DNA from: an uncultured Synergistales bacterium
Lineage (GTDB): Bacteria; Synergistota; Synergistia; Synergistales; Aminobacteriaceae
DNA: 64,000 nucleotides
Direction: 5' to 3'
NCBI GenBank assembly: GCA_905235735.1
Contig: CAJOMU010000005.1
Coordinates: forward strand, 1 to 64,000
Part shown: piece after piece, positions 27,662 to 37,685 of the stretch
Layout: every line of letters begins with the position of its first letter
How positions within the stretch are numbered: the stretch's first letter is position 1
Notes under the pieces: model-generated
Databases searched by the model: none
Told to the model about the DNA's origin: nothing
Seen by the model: the letters and a program-made list of their open reading frames with translations, nothing else
Translations under genes and position numbers: made by a program

Positions 27662-30600
27662 TTATGCTTTGAGTGCTTCATTCAATCCGTTCCAGTCCAT
27701 ATTTCTAGCTGACGTTTCAATCTTCTCAAATCTTGCAGCTTCACTCTCTGGGATTCGATACTTCCTGACCTCCTCAATCACACTGTCAATCGCATCAATG
27801 TCAAAGCTGGCTGAAAATTCCTTTATGGCCTCGTATGCCTCACTCAATGACTCACGCGAAATCTCTGGAGCTGATTCTCGTGCTTTATCCTTTGACGCGT
27901 ATAACGGTGAAAGCGTATCAATCAGACTTCGGTAATCCTCAAGGAGTTTAGGTGTACGTTCCTGAATCTGAAGCAGTGAATTTTCAGACAAATCATTTCC
28001 GCAGTCCTCAAGATGTCTCGCCTCATCTGAGAGTTTCAATGCACCGATTAATCTCGCTGAACTCTTCAGTGCATGTACTTTTATCGTGTAGTTCTTATAG
28101 TCTCCGTTCATGAAGAATAATTCGATTGCGTTTGAGTTCTCGTTGATTGAACGGTAGAACTGTTCAAGTGTTCGGGCTAATATCTCTTCGTTCGAGCATA
28201 CTCTGACTGCATCATCATAACTCAATCCCTCTGCTGTTTCATAGAACTCTTCAAGCTCAGTATTTCCTGAGTCAGTTTCGTTAGTACTGTCATCATCGGC
28301 GAATGTCTTCTGAAGCATAACTTTCGATTCTGGAAGATATTTCACAAGCATATCCTCGATTGCAGGGCCTTCAACAGGTTTCGATAAGTAGTTCGTGAAT
28401 CCGAGACGCAGATATTCTTCACGTGCACCGCTCACAGCATCTGCCGTAAGACATATAACCGGCGTATCATGATTCATTCCTCCATCCTGACTGCGAATGT
28501 TCTGCATGGCCTCTGTTCCGTCCATCTGGGGCATTCTCTGATCCATGAAGATTAAATCATAACGCATCTTCTTGGTGAGTGATAATGCTTCAAATCCGCT
28601 TGAGGCAGTATCAATCTTAATCTCAGTTTTGCTTAGTAGACCTTCAACGACCGTAAGATTCATATCAGTATCATCAACAACAAGTATATGTGCCTCTGGT
28701 GCTCTGAATGATTCTCTGTATGCTCTCATGCTCTGAATGTACTGATTGAACTTCTCCTGAAAGTTTCCGATTGCCTCATCACGAATGATTTTCTGCGGAA
28801 GTCTTATTGTAAACGTTGAGCCTTTTCCGTATTCACTTTCAACATTTACTTCACCGTTCATCATCTCAAGAAGATTCTTCGTGATTGACAGTCCCAATCC
28901 AGTACCTTCAACTGTGCTGTTGCGTTCGAGGTCAACACGCTGGAATTTCCCGAACAATTTCGGAAGGTCTTCGCTCTTAATGCCTATGCCTGTATCTTTG
29001 ACGGTGAAGACGAGATCAATCATATCATCATTGCGAACTCCTTCAACATGAAACGATACGCTGCCTTTATCCGTATATTTCACCGCGTTATTCAGAATGT
29101 TCACGACAACCTGACGTACACGAACAGGGTCTCCGTAAAGCTCATCGGGAAGTGTCTCATCAACATTAACGTGAAACTCAAGATTTTTCTGCTTGGCCTT
29201 GAAGATTATCATGTTTGTAACGTCATTCAGAACGGAACTTAGCTTGTAATTCGCATCAACGATTTCCATTTTACCGGCTTCAATCTTCGAGAAGTCCAGT
29301 ATGTCATTGATGATTGAGAGCAAATTCTTTCCTGCACTCTCAACGTTACGGGCATATTTCGTAATCTTCTTATCTTTACTTTCCCGAATTATCATCTCAT
29401 TCATACCTAAGACCGCGTTAATTGGAGTTCTAATCTCGTGGGACATGCTCGCAAGAAATTCACTCTTTGCAGTGTTAGCTTTTTCCGCATGAGCCTTCGC
29501 AATCTCTAACAATTTTTCGCGTTCACTTCTGACAGAAAATATGCTGAGCAGAATCACGAGACTTATTACGCATAATCCCATTTGAATCAGGTTGTTCTTT
29601 ATCAGTGATGCCCGTATGACGTAATAGTCCATGCCTCCGCTTATGACTACCCTGACATCGTTATAGACTTCCTGACGCATCCATATTGCCGACACGAAAA
29701 ACAGAAGAAGGAGCATTGCAGTCCATACCATAATGGAATTTCCGAAACGCCTGCTCTTATCCTTACCGACAATGTACCTGAAGAAAGCGAGGCCGAGAAT
29801 GCCCCACACAGTGAGAATCAAATATGATTCAGGGGAGAGTGTGCTTATTGCCCAGAAATTGGGAACGACAGCGAGAATGAAAAATCCGACGGATATTATG
29901 ACACCCAAAGCTCCGATGAATTGAACTCCGCGTTTGCCTTCCTTCCATGCAAATTTGAATGCCGCCGCTGAAGTGTAACCGTAAACTATTGTTGCGCCCA
30001 CCGAAGTAACATCAACAATCCAACCTACAGCAGTTCGTCCCATGAACGGAATGAATATTGATACGGCCATGATGACCATGATGCATTTCGCAGGTGTTTT
30101 GAATCTTCCGAGTGAATGAAACTTTTCGGAGATAATGCCTTCATCAGCGACTGCATATAGCAGACGTGAAGCCGCAACATAATTCCCTACTATGCCTGTA
30201 ACAACTCCTCCGATTAGAGTGAACGCAAGAACAATAAGCCCTGCATTGCCCATAATCTTTTGTGTAGCGAAGAAAACAGGAAGACCTTTGAGACCTTCGA
30301 GATTGCCGATGTCTTTTATGTATGCAGTCCAGTCCGAATAACCTTCAGGCTGAACTGTAACTGCGAGCCACGTCAGGAATGTATAAGCTATTCCTCCTGC
30401 GATTACTGCTGAGGCCATGATGAGAAATGATTTCCTGACGGAGAATTTGAATTCGCCTGTTGAATGCGATACTGATTCAAATCCAACGAATGCCCATGGT
30501 ACTAATGCCGCTACCTGTATAACCTGAACGTAAACTTTTTCGCCGTCAGAGAACCATGCCTGAGACATACTTGCTCCATTAGTCTTAACGAGTGCGACGC

Positions 30601-31138
30601 ATAGACAGAAGACGATTCCGAAAAACAGAATCAGAGCCATTAATGTCTGAACGAAACCTGTCAATTTCCCGCTGAATATGCAGATGAATCCGAATAATAA
30701 TATTGCACCTATGGATACGAGTGCTTCACCGAAATAGACATCATAGCCTGCAACAGTGTAATGAAACCCGAACTGAAAGATTCCGCCTGCAAGATTTCTC
30801 GCGATGAGAACGAGTGCAGTTGCGTTAGCCCAGAGTATTGCTATGTATGTCAGAATGAGAAACCACGAGCACAGGAAGCCGTGATCATATCCGAAAGCCT
30901 CTTTTGTATAAGTGAAAGCACCTCCGCTGCCTGCGTAATGATTCATAAGGTAGTGATAGTTGAAGCTGATGATGAGCATTAATGCCGCGCCTATCGACAT
31001 TCCGATAATTGTTCCCATTGGGCCAGCTGTTGGAAGGAATGTTGTGCCCGGCATCATGAAAGCTCCCCATCCTACAGTACAACCGAAAGCGAGAGACCAT
31101 GCACCTAAAGGCGATAAATATCTGTCAGGTTTCTTCAT
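27662..31138 (-). CDS. Amino-acid permease fused to a hybrid histidine kinase (APC-HisKA-HATPase-REC-HPt)
   Basis: This is a 1158-residue single frame. Residues ~1-450 are an APC-superfamily permease (SPLGAWSLAFGCTVGWGAFM, GSGGAFTYTKEAFGYDHGF) with about 12 membrane helices; one or two more helices precede residue 540. A coiled linker leads to the HisKA box SMSHEIRTPINAVLG (His567) and a HATPase with NNAVKYTD, DTGIGI and GTGLGLSI. A receiver domain ends the relay core (VDDTDMN, Asp866 in LIFMDQRMPQMDG), followed by an HPt domain (His1022 in KVHALKSSARLIG) and a helical tail. All phosphorelay residues are present. It is likely a transporter-type receptor for an amino acid. No output regulator gene is adjacent. 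Confidence 0.93.
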   Translation of the reverse strand: MKKPDRYLSPLGAWSLAFGCTVGWGAFMMPGTTFLPTAGPMGTIIGMSIGAALMLIISFNYHYLMNHYAGSGGAFTYTKEAFGYDHGFLCSWFLILTYIAILWANATALVLIARNLAGGIFQFGFHYTVAGYDVYFGEALVSIGAILLFGFICIFSGKLTGFVQTLMALILFFGIVFCLCVALVKTNGASMSQAWFSDGEKVYVQVIQVAALVPWAFVGFESVSHSTGEFKFSVRKSFLIMASAVIAGGIAYTFLTWLAVTVQPEGYSDWTAYIKDIGNLEGLKGLPVFFATQKIMGNAGLIVLAFTLIGGVVTGIVGNYVAASRLLYAVADEGIISEKFHSLGRFKTPAKCIMVIMAVSIFIPFMGRTAVGWIVDVTSVGATIVYGYTSAAAFKFAWKEGKRGVQFIGALGVIISVGFFILAVVPNFWAISTLSPESYLILTVWGILGLAFFRYIVGKDKSRRFGNSIMVWTAMLLLLFFVSAIWMRQEVYNDVRVVISGGMDYYVIRASLIKNNLIQMGLCVISLVILLSIFSVRSEREKLLEIAKAHAEKANTAKSEFLASMSHEIRTPINAVLGMNEMIIRESKDKKITKYARNVESAGKNLLSIINDILDFSKIEAGKMEIVDANYKLSSVLNDVTNMIIFKAKQKNLEFHVNVDETLPDELYGDPVRVRQVVVNILNNAVKYTDKGSVSFHVEGVRNDDMIDLVFTVKDTGIGIKSEDLPKLFGKFQRVDLERNSTVEGTGLGLSITKNLLEMMNGEVNVESEYGKGSTFTIRLPQKIIRDEAIGNFQEKFNQYIQSMRAYRESFRAPEAHILVVDDTDMNLTVVEGLLSKTEIKIDTASSGFEALSLTKKMRYDLIFMDQRMPQMDGTEAMQNIRSQDGGMNHDTPVICLTADAVSGAREEYLRLGFTNYLSKPVEGPAIEDMLVKYLPESKVMLQKTFADDDSTNETDSGNTELEEFYETAEGLSYDDAVRVCSNEEILARTLEQFYRSINENSNAIELFFMNGDYKNYTIKVHALKSSARLIGALKLSDEARHLEDCGNDLSENSLLQIQERTPKLLEDYRSLIDTLSPLYASKDKARESAPEISRESLSEAYEAIKEFSASFDIDAIDSVIEEVRKYRIPESEAARFEKIETSARNMDWNGLNEALKA

Positions 31139-34640: not shown

Positions 34641-34675
34641 CCGTACTTGTACTTTGCAAGTGCGGTTAATTTTTT
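34641..34675 (+). terminator. Terminator after the cupin-CMD operon
   Basis: The stem CCGTACTTG/CAAGTGCGG (one G-U pair, 34641-34649 with 34657-34665) is followed after TTAA by TTTTTT. Confidence 0.82.
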
Positions 34676-35571
34676 ATATCCCCGTTCCAATCTTCATTAA
34701 TCGGAATTGCTCCCAATCTAATTAACTCTATGTTGCCGGGATAATCCGCGTCTCTGCAAAATAATTTGCACCATTTATGCTTCAGATTCTCAGTCGCTCC
34801 TGTCCATGTTCCTCCCTTCCCTGAATCAGATTTTATTATCACAGACGCTTCTGAATGTGCATAGATGTATCTGTTCCTCGACATTGCATTTCCGACATTG
34901 AAACCTGCATCAGGATTCACCTCTGAAAGAATTAATCTCTTACCGGAAGTTACGTTCTTGCGGATGTCTTTCTTCTTCAGCATGGCCGATAATCCTCCCG
35001 CAATGTATTCTATCAGCGGCATTCCCTCATCAAATGCTGTCTGTGCTGCTATCGAATCAACTCCCTTAGCTCCTCCCGATACAACTCCGAGTTTATATGC
35101 GCATGTCTTCTTCACAGTCATTCTCGTAAATTCTTCATCGTCAGAATCAATTTCTCTTGAGCCTGCATAACCTACAACAGAAAGTTCTGCAATCGAAATA
35201 TCACCTGAACAGTAAAACATAGGCGGACATTTCTGCTTCAGCCTCATCTTGAGCTTAACAGGATATTCTCTGTCTGCACGCGTGTAAATGTTTATTCCCT
35301 CTGATGCATACCTGCTCACTTCCGCGAATAAACCTGCACTTCTGTCAATAAGACGCATTAATCTCTCTGCAAAGTCCCTGTCGCAATATAACCGTGAAAT
35401 CATATCGTCTTCTGTGAAATTCAGAATGTCTTTAGGTTCGAGTTTATTCCTCATGAGTTCCTCTGCAACTTTGCTCCATTCCGATATACTTAATGGTTCA
35501 GTTCCTTCAGGAGCGCAAAGATGTGAACAGAATATTATGATTGCCTGTGAATTTTCGTTCATGTCCCTCAT
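34666..35571 (-). CDS. DprA/Smf-like Rossmann protein
   Basis: This 301-residue protein carries the DNA-processing A fold at ~130-290: VVGYAGSREI, VSGGAKGVDSIAAQTAFDEG, and the later NAMSRNRYIYAHSEASVII with the GKGGTWTGATENL nucleotide/DNA loop. The N-terminal ~100 residues are helical and not conserved with competence DprA, and a C-terminal winged helix is absent. The start overlaps the upstream RecQ stop by 4 nt, indicating a coupled pair. The pairing suggests a helicase-linked DNA role, possibly in defence. It is not a typical housekeeping dprA. Confidence 0.85.
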   Translation of the reverse strand: MRDMNENSQAIIIFCSHLCAPEGTEPLSISEWSKVAEELMRNKLEPKDILNFTEDDMISRLYCDRDFAERLMRLIDRSAGLFAEVSRYASEGINIYTRADREYPVKLKMRLKQKCPPMFYCSGDISIAELSVVGYAGSREIDSDDEEFTRMTVKKTCAYKLGVVSGGAKGVDSIAAQTAFDEGMPLIEYIAGGLSAMLKKKDIRKNVTSGKRLILSEVNPDAGFNVGNAMSRNRYIYAHSEASVIIKSDSGKGGTWTGATENLKHKWCKLFCRDADYPGNIELIRLGAIPINEDWNGDIKN

Positions 35572-37622
35572 ACCTCTGAACTGTCAGCAAGTGTAAACGG
35601 ATAAACTTCAATGCACCCTGCTTCCATGAGCTTATACCCGCATACCGTGAGTGTCCATTTTGAATCTACAATATCATCAACAAGAATCACTTTTGCAGGA
35701 AGCCTCTTAATCTTCACATAAAATGACTGTCTTGCATTCTCACACTGATACGCACTGTTCTCCATATCCTTCTGAGGTTCAGCAGGCAGTTTACCAAGTG
35801 CGTCATAAAGTGTGATATGCATTCTTGACGCTAATCTTGAAGCAAAATCACTCACAATATCAGAGCGCAATGAAGGTACAAATGTAATCGCTCTCACTCT
35901 CTTTTGATTCACTAGGGGCATTAGGACTTCAGCGGCACGTTCAACAAGTTCATCTGAGAATCTGCCCGTCTCATATTTCCCTTCACGAACCATTTCTCCA
36001 TAACCCGAATCACCGTACTTCGAGAGGCATATTCCGTTCATGTTCACATAGTCTATCTTCTTTCTGTCAGGCCACAACTTGCGGGGAAGAATCTCAAGTA
36101 CACGCGAATTTATCCATGTCTCAGCGATTATCAGACTTGAAGATTTAAGCGTCAGGTCAGGATACACATAATGCCTAAGACAATTAGAACATCTTCCGCA
36201 GTCATTCTCTTCATCATCATCTAGACAGTTCACGATGAACTTGCTGTAACATTCATTCGTGTGTATCAGTTCATTCATCTGTTTCATCTCCTGCTTTCTT
36301 ATGCGCGTAATCTCCTGATAATGCTTTGAGTCATAAACGAATCTCTTTGCCGATGCATAATATGCGCTGCCTTCCTTAAAGATAAATCCGTCATTCTCAA
36401 GGAAATCTAATGCCTTCATCACTCTTGTATGTCTGATATTCAACGATGCTTCAATTTCAGTCAGCTTCACTCCCTCACCTGACGATATGACGTTATAAAT
36501 GCTTCTGCTCTCACCTCGTGTAGGGAATGCCGTCTCAATGAAGAAATTATTTATTCTCTCGTCATCATTTCCGCCTGACATGAGAAACGCATATGCATCT
36601 GAAAGATTGCGTCCTGCACGTCCAATCTGCTGATAGTATGAAACTATATTTGCCGGTGTCTGATAGTGAATCACAAATGCTATGTCTCCTTTATCGTATC
36701 CCATTCCTAATTTTACGGTCGCTATTATCGCTTTGATTCTGTTATCGTGAAATTTCTCTATTGCCTCAGTGTTAATCGTCTCATCATTCCCGGAGTAATA
36801 CGGCATAGTGTTAATTCCGTTGTGATTCAGGAAAGCGGATAAATCTTCGCAGTCCCTTCGTGTAAGACAGTAAATTATACCCGTACCCGGAAGTTTACTG
36901 AGGTTCTCAAGAAGCCACGCATAACGTTTAGCTTTACTGTCCAGTTTTAGAATCTGAATGTGAAGTGATTCACGCGTGAGTTTACCTCTTGAGACGTAAA
37001 CATCATCGCCGAGTTGAGTGCATAAATCATTAACCACTCTGTCATTTGCTGTAGCTGTTACCGCTAAGACTGATACGTTTGCAGGCATGTCTGATATTAT
37101 GCGTCCGAGTTTACCATATTCAAGCCTGAAATCATGACCCCAGTCAGAGATACAATGAGCCTCATCGATAACGAATAGGCCGATTTTGAATCTGTGAAGT
37201 GAACTCTGAATGTCTGATGCAAAGAGTGTTTCAGGGGTTACAAATATAACATCAAGTTCATCATTCTTCATGCTCTCGATAATCTCTGCTCTTCTGTCTT
37301 TAACTGTGCTGTTCAGGACATCGCATTTCAGATTCATTTTCTCTGCCATTTCCTTTTGGTTATCCATGAGAACAAGTAACGGACTGACGACCATAGTCAT
37401 GCCGCGTTTCTTTTTTCTGAGCATTTTTGCGCTGATGAAGTAAACGAGACTTTTACCCCAGCCTGTACGCTGAACAACGAGAGTTCGTTTTCTCATCATT
37501 ACAGATTCTATTGCCTCGTACTGTCCTTCTCTGAAAGATGCTTTCAATCCGTATGTCTTCTTCAGAATCTCACGTGCATAGTAAAATATTCTTCCGTCAT
37601 GAATGCTGTACTTAGGCGACAG
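35568..37622 (-). CDS. RecQ-type helicase fused to a C-terminal phosphoribosyltransferase domain
   Basis: This 684-residue protein has RecQ motifs FREGQ, TGWGKSLVY (Walker A), VIDEAHCISDWGHDFR (DEAH box), AVTATA and QQIGRAGR. A zinc site DCGRCSNC follows, then winged-helix-like sequence. There is no HRDC domain. Residues ~530-684 form a ComF-like phosphoribosyltransferase with the PRPP loop VILVDDIVDSKWTLT. The start is assigned to CTG 37622, six bases after GGAGGG. The later TTG at 37547 would cut off the conserved ILKKTYGLKASFREGQ segment and lacks a site. No ATG, GTG or TTG lies between the upstream stop and that TTG. The gene is coupled to the DprA-like gene. Confidence 0.88.
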   Translation of the reverse strand: MSPKYSIHDGRIFYYAREILKKTYGLKASFREGQYEAIESVMMRKRTLVVQRTGWGKSLVYFISAKMLRKKKRGMTMVVSPLLVLMDNQKEMAEKMNLKCDVLNSTVKDRRAEIIESMKNDELDVIFVTPETLFASDIQSSLHRFKIGLFVIDEAHCISDWGHDFRLEYGKLGRIISDMPANVSVLAVTATANDRVVNDLCTQLGDDVYVSRGKLTRESLHIQILKLDSKAKRYAWLLENLSKLPGTGIIYCLTRRDCEDLSAFLNHNGINTMPYYSGNDETINTEAIEKFHDNRIKAIIATVKLGMGYDKGDIAFVIHYQTPANIVSYYQQIGRAGRNLSDAYAFLMSGGNDDERINNFFIETAFPTRGESRSIYNVISSGEGVKLTEIEASLNIRHTRVMKALDFLENDGFIFKEGSAYYASAKRFVYDSKHYQEITRIRKQEMKQMNELIHTNECYSKFIVNCLDDDEENDCGRCSNCLRHYVYPDLTLKSSSLIIAETWINSRVLEILPRKLWPDRKKIDYVNMNGICLSKYGDSGYGEMVREGKYETGRFSDELVERAAEVLMPLVNQKRVRAITFVPSLRSDIVSDFASRLASRMHITLYDALGKLPAEPQKDMENSAYQCENARQSFYVKIKRLPAKVILVDDIVDSKWTLTVCGYKLMEAGCIEVYPFTLADSSEV

Positions 37623-37685
37623 TTTAATCCCTCCAGTGTGAAAGTGAGTACTATATTATAGAAAATTTCTTAAGGAGTGAATATC

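What the first reader, a model, noticed from the sequence alone, without database searches (positions are those of the whole stretch)
34666..37622. RecQ-phosphoribosyltransferase fusion translationally coupled to a DprA-like protein
The helicase carries a ComF-like PRPP-binding domain in place of HRDC and overlaps a non-competence DprA-like gene by 4 nt. Helicase, PRTase and DprA/LOG-type nucleotide-binding folds recur in predicted conflict systems. The pair could be a two-gene DNA-defence or DNA-uptake module.
Basis: partly seen in the sequence, partly recalled or inferred. Interest (0 to 1): 0.65.

Follow-up and report, generated by a model that had tools for sequence, protein, structure and literature searches.

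The report
PsyrTA toxin–antitoxin pair in Fretibacterium
This two-gene unit is a known kind of bacterial self-poison and antidote pair (PsyrTA, also called RqlHI), found as a come-and-go accessory in a gut bacterium; the system itself is not new, but comparing relatives points to the part of the enzyme that probably makes it poisonous.

Summary
[quoted passage not shown] It is already a named system. The helicase matches PADLOC PsyrT over its full length (E=4e-228) and the partner matches PsyrA (E=3e-84). This is PsyrTA = RqlHI, an experimentally supported toxin–antitoxin pair that is listed among defence systems. The host is Fretibacterium (Synergistota). The pair is accessory: 4 of 43 genomes of the genus carry it, always beside ccdA, and a sister species has a clean empty site there. 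Closest outside relatives are in gut Clostridia. Paired homologues elsewhere lie among restriction–modification, BREX, CBASS, Septu and Hma genes; antitoxin-less homologues do not. The window copy is not in a defence island. The antitoxin lacks the usual C-terminal extension. New here: among 117 homologues scored, a PRTase-domain lysine (K621 here) is present in 83 of 88 with an antitoxin and 0 of 29 without. The window copy has it, and the PRPP-site acids, so it is predicted to be active and antitoxin-dependent. Verdict: new member of a known kind, with one testable new observation.

The parts
35568..37622 (-). psyrT (rqlH): RecQ-like helicase with C-terminal PRTase; CTG start proposed, first common start codon TTG at 37547
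37629..37634 (-). GGAGGG Shine-Dalgarno-like site 6 nt before the proposed CTG start
   Evidence: sequence; inference
37026..37529 (-). DEAD helicase domain (Walker A RTGWGKS, DEAH box)
36606..36914 (-). Helicase C-terminal domain (QxxGRAGR)
36177..36350 (-). RecQ Zn-binding segment with four cysteines (C461, C478, C481, C484 in P0001 numbering)
35571..36125 (-). PRTase domain, in the place where other RecQ proteins have HRDC
35736..35774 (-). QK-M-NS-Q-N motif (Q620, K621, Q629, N632), kept in paired and lost in solo homologues
35652..35687 (-). PRPP-binding loop ILVDDIVDSKWT; D656 corresponds to RqlH D663, which is needed for toxicity
34666..35571 (-). psyrA (rqlI): DprA-like antitoxin, short form (301 aa; 298 aa from ATG 35562)
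34676..37672 (.). stretch absent from sister genome G059, which has 3 bp there between decarboxylase and ccdA genes (empty site)

Best explanation
A chromosomal PsyrTA (RqlHI) toxin–antitoxin pair. PsyrT is a RecQ-like ATP-dependent helicase whose C-terminal ComF/ShosT-type PRTase is the toxic part. PsyrA, a DprA/SLOG-fold protein translated right behind it, binds and restrains it. Most likely working mode (inferred from RqlHI and ShosTA): the helicase brings the PRTase to DNA or senses DNA processing. When PsyrA is lost, titrated or signalled, for example during phage or plasmid replication, the PRTase consumes PRPP or perturbs the nucleotide pool or DNA-linked nucleotides. That causes DNA damage, SOS and growth arrest, giving abortive defence or maintenance by addiction. 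Shown here: domain anatomy, intact active-site residues, conserved pairing, purifying selection, patchy presence, defence neighbourhoods of paired homologues. Inferred: toxicity, neutralisation, trigger and chemistry in this copy.
For: PADLOC PsyrT and PsyrA full-length matches. RqlH toxicity needs its PRTase domain and D663, and RqlI binds and restrains it (PMC4670107); the equivalent D656 and helicase K60/DEAH are intact here. Model matches are ComF and ShosT for the PRTase, ShosA and DprA for the partner. ShosTA is a characterised defence TA: ShosT is a PRTase and pyrophosphatase that disturbs purine metabolism, ShosA binds DNA (review PMC12593503). Patchy in genus and family, with an empty site. 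Paired homologues lie among RM, BREX, CBASS, AbiE, Septu and Hma genes; 86 neighbours of solo homologues gave no PADLOC hit at the same cut-off. K621 is kept only where an antitoxin is present.
Against: No toxicity, binding or phage data exist for this copy. The window copy is not in a defence island. PsyrTA showed no anti-phage effect in E. coli NILS69. The antitoxin lacks the C-terminal extension found in most relatives, though RqlI residues 1-320 suffice. PRTase toxicity and defence were shown in relatives only.
Confidence: 0.9

Rival explanations
1. A DNA-repair or genome-maintenance helicase pair: PRTase and PsyrA jointly process damaged or modified nucleotides, and toxicity appears only when the partner is removed.
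For: Russell and Mulvey proposed a cooperative DNA function. Helicase motifs are intact. The partner is the recombination mediator DprA's relative.
Against: Absent from 39 of 43 genomes of the genus, with a clean empty site in a near-identical sister; defence-linked neighbourhoods of paired homologues; relatives outside the phylum are closer than those within the family.
Confidence: 0.12
2. A DNA-uptake (natural transformation) module built from ComF-like and DprA-like parts.
For: Fold similarity of PRTase to ComF and of partner to DprA.
Against: The genome has separate canonical DprA and ComF genes. The partner scores 68.9 bits against the 191.15-bit DprA cut-off. No competence genes flank it; no transformation was detected for ExPEC carrying rqlHI.
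Confidence: 0.03
3. A purely selfish addiction module with no benefit to the host.
For: TA logic; patchy distribution; also on an E. coli plasmid and other replicons.
Against: Four Fretibacterium species keep it at the same chromosomal spot, and the two compared are under purifying selection; association of homologues with defence genes.
Confidence: 0.2

Closest known systems
PsyrTA / RqlHI (Pseudomonas syringae psyrTA, Sberro 2013; E. coli F11 rqlHI, Russell and Mulvey 2015)
   Same: Same domain order (RecQ helicase, Zn segment, PRTase), same partner, same gene order, same catalytic residues; full-length profile matches to both proteins.
   Different: The antitoxin is the short form (about 300 aa) lacking the C-terminal extension of RqlI (400 aa). 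Host is Synergistota, nearest kin are gut Clostridia, at a fixed locus outside defence islands.
ShosTA (PDB 8zva-8zvd; anti-phage in Rousset 2022, PMC9122126)
   Same: PRTase toxin plus DprA-like antitoxin; ShosT and ShosA are among the closest solved folds of the two models.
   Different: ShosT has no helicase (own knowledge and PMC9122126); the partner is far nearer PsyrA than ShosA (E 3e-84 against 2.5e-23).
Mycobacterium smegmatis RqlH type (solo)
   Same: Helicase with C-terminal PRTase domain.
   Different: No antitoxin partner; in the sampled solos the K621 motif is lost and flanks show no defence genes.
Housekeeping RecQ, DprA and ComFC
   Same: Shared domains.
   Different: Below the curated cut-offs of the RecQ, DprA and comF models; separate DprA and ComF genes are in the genome.

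Membership tests
PsyrTA (RqlHI) | PsyrT: RecQ-type helicase with C-terminal PRTase | tested here: met
   PDLC03928 E=3.8e-228, positions 8-685 of 689; PRTase fold model
PsyrTA (RqlHI) | PsyrA: DprA-like protein directly downstream on the same strand | tested here: met
   PDLC03927 E=2.6e-84; 4-nt overlap or 5-nt gap
PsyrTA (RqlHI) | Intact helicase residues (RqlH K49, D148) and PRPP-site acid (RqlH D663) | tested here: met
   K60, D156 and D652/D653/D656 present and conserved in the family
PsyrTA (RqlHI) | Toxin harmful alone, neutralised by partner through binding | not testable with these tools
   shown for RqlHI only (PMC4670107)
PsyrTA (RqlHI) | Anti-phage activity | not testable with these tools
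   listed in PADLOC; no activity detected for E. coli NILS69 PsyrTA
ShosTA | PRTase toxin without helicase, partner best matching ShosA | tested here: not met
   PRTase is fused to RecQ; PsyrA beats ShosA by 200 bits
RecQ equivalog (TIGR01389) | score above 640.2 bits | tested here: not met
   322.8 bits; no HRDC domain
DprA equivalog (TIGR00732) | score above 191.15 bits | tested here: not met
   68.9 bits; a canonical DprA is elsewhere in the genome
ComF (TIGR00201) | score above 233.55 bits | tested here: not met
   21.1 bits at this locus

The most novel reading that the evidence does not exclude
The PRTase-domain lysine K621 (with K552) is the switch between a toxic, antitoxin-dependent PsyrT and a detoxified solo RqlH. 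Lineages that lack the antitoxin also lack this lysine, which would explain why many bacteria tolerate RqlH without RqlI.
Probability: 0.5. Interest if true: 0.5.

Novelty: new member of a known kind. Interest (0 to 1): 0.33.

Why it matters
It corrects a would-be new defence candidate to a named toxin–antitoxin system and extends that system to Fretibacterium with exchange across gut phyla. The K621 contrast gives a direct test of an open question in the RqlHI literature: why solo RqlH is tolerated, when the original authors saw no major sequence difference.

Tried and rejected
Viral contigs scanned with P0001 alone found nothing; with the alignment, only L159 and L160 were full-length homologues. 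No phage record held a full homologue. Terminal repeats at the insertion: only 7-bp matches, so no sign of a mobile-element mechanism. The first K621 test counted L114 and L257 as solo; closer scans found their PsyrA, so the corrected count is used. Promoter-like sites were fewer than in shuffles, so none is claimed. Papers of Sberro 2013 and of the M. smegmatis RqlH study were not held.

Full report
What is there. Window 35568-37622 (minus) encodes a RecQ-like helicase: DEAD, Helicase_C and Zn-binding segments, no HRDC, and a C-terminal domain that Pfam does not recognise. PADLOC names the whole protein PsyrT (E=3.8e-228) and the next gene, 34666-35571, PsyrA (E=2.6e-84; ShosA is a distant second). 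The C-terminal domain is a PRTase: its profile hits PRPP synthetases and HGPRTs at the PRPP loop, and its AlphaFold2 model (pLDDT 94.8) best matches H. pylori ComF (Z 15.5) and ShosT bound to PRPP-Mg (Z 12.4). The PsyrA model (pLDDT 95.7) best matches ShosA, then DprA.

What is known. In E. coli F11, RqlH alone causes SOS and filamentation. This needs the PRTase domain and D663. RqlI binds RqlH and restrains it, and its C-terminal HTH is dispensable (PMC4670107). Iyer and colleagues had already noted the helicase-PRTase plus DprA pair (PMC5512222), and Rousset et al. grouped shosTA, syrTA and rqlHI as DprA-antitoxin systems (PMC9122126). Defence by PsyrTA itself is weakly supported: a native-host test found none (PMC12409345). 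ShosTA, the nearest analogue, is reported to act as a PRTase and pyrophosphatase that disturbs purine metabolism (review PMC12593503).

Membership. Helicase residues (K60, D156) and PRPP-site acids (D652, D653, D656) are intact. Gene order and spacing match. Both genes are under purifying selection against G022 (dN/dS about 0.16 and 0.15). Canonical DprA and ComF lie elsewhere in the genome.

Accessory, not housekeeping. The genus is Fretibacterium (the record matching carrier G061 is named so). True PsyrT is found in 4 of 43 genomes of the genus and 6 of 83 of the family (the lower-scoring rows there match only the helicase part), with PsyrA in the same six. In all four genus carriers the pair lies beside ccdA, divergently. 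Sister genome G059, whose flanking proteins are mostly 93-99% identical, has 3 bp where the window has 2,997 bp (34676-37672). Carriers are scattered on a ccdA tree. The same locus plus scatter suggests old presence with repeated loss, or exchange within the genus; these tools do not separate the two.

Wider kin. On a PsyrT tree the Fretibacterium copies form a strongly supported group with Oscillospiraceae and other gut Clostridia, apart from the two other carriers of the same family, which have long antitoxins. This indicates transfer between gut phyla. Antitoxins come in a long form (about 405-470 aa), a short form (about 285-355 aa, as here) or are absent (mostly Actinomycetota).

Neighbourhoods. 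Paired homologues: between hsdS and hsdR on an E. coli plasmid; beside pglX and pglZ with Cas9 nearby in Clostridium nigeriense, and with a CBASS cyclase and phospholipase, AbiEii and a type I methyltransferase on contig L159. Among 85 neighbours of 11 paired loci, 60 PADLOC models matched at E<=1e-40 (type I RM, Hma, Septu and others; several models can match one protein); among 86 neighbours of 11 solo loci, none did. The solo set is mainly actinobacterial, so phylum is a confounder. The window's own neighbours gave no defence match.

A new observation. Of all columns, K621 in a QK-M-NS-Q-N motif of the PRTase best separates paired from solo homologues. It was seen first in 81 homologues, then checked in an independent draw from two phyla: 33 of 34 paired had QK and 4 of 5 solo lacked it, the fifth proving to be paired. 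Corrected total: 83 of 88 paired, 0 of 29 solo. On a helicase-only tree the 6 independent contrasts go the expected way (5.7 on average) and none the other way (median p 0.03). The fit is correlational and few independent events carry it. Russell and Mulvey reported no major sequence difference between the two classes, so this is a testable refinement. The window copy has K621 and K552, so it is predicted to be toxic and antitoxin-dependent.

Verdict. New member of a known kind. The mechanism (PRTase toxin on a helicase, DprA-fold antitoxin) is inferred from relatives.

Noticed in passing
window 27662-31138 (-): A single 1158-aa protein joins an amino-acid permease to a hybrid histidine kinase, response regulator and Hpt domain; in sister genome G059 it appears as two ORFs.
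   Followed up: partly
L062:8144-10480 and L063:7257-9554: Next to PsyrTA in two genomes of the same family lies an AAA_13 ATPase (L062 copy matches PADLOC PDC-S06) fused to an HRDC domain, the very domain that the neighbouring RecQ-like helicase lacks.
   Followed up: partly
L159:1216-17152: A contig from the viral collection carries AbiE, CBASS, PsyrTA and type I RM genes in a row (RM subunits beyond the methyltransferase by reading): a defence island, perhaps not a phage.
   Followed up: partly
L085:3205-22034: In Clostridium nigeriense, PsyrTA lies between pglX and pglZ of a BREX locus, with a GmrSD/Orf5-like gene and Cas9 nearby.
   Followed up: partly
L060:7606-9453: In carrier G031 a TROVE-domain (Ro-like) protein lies on the far side of ccdA.
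   Followed up: no
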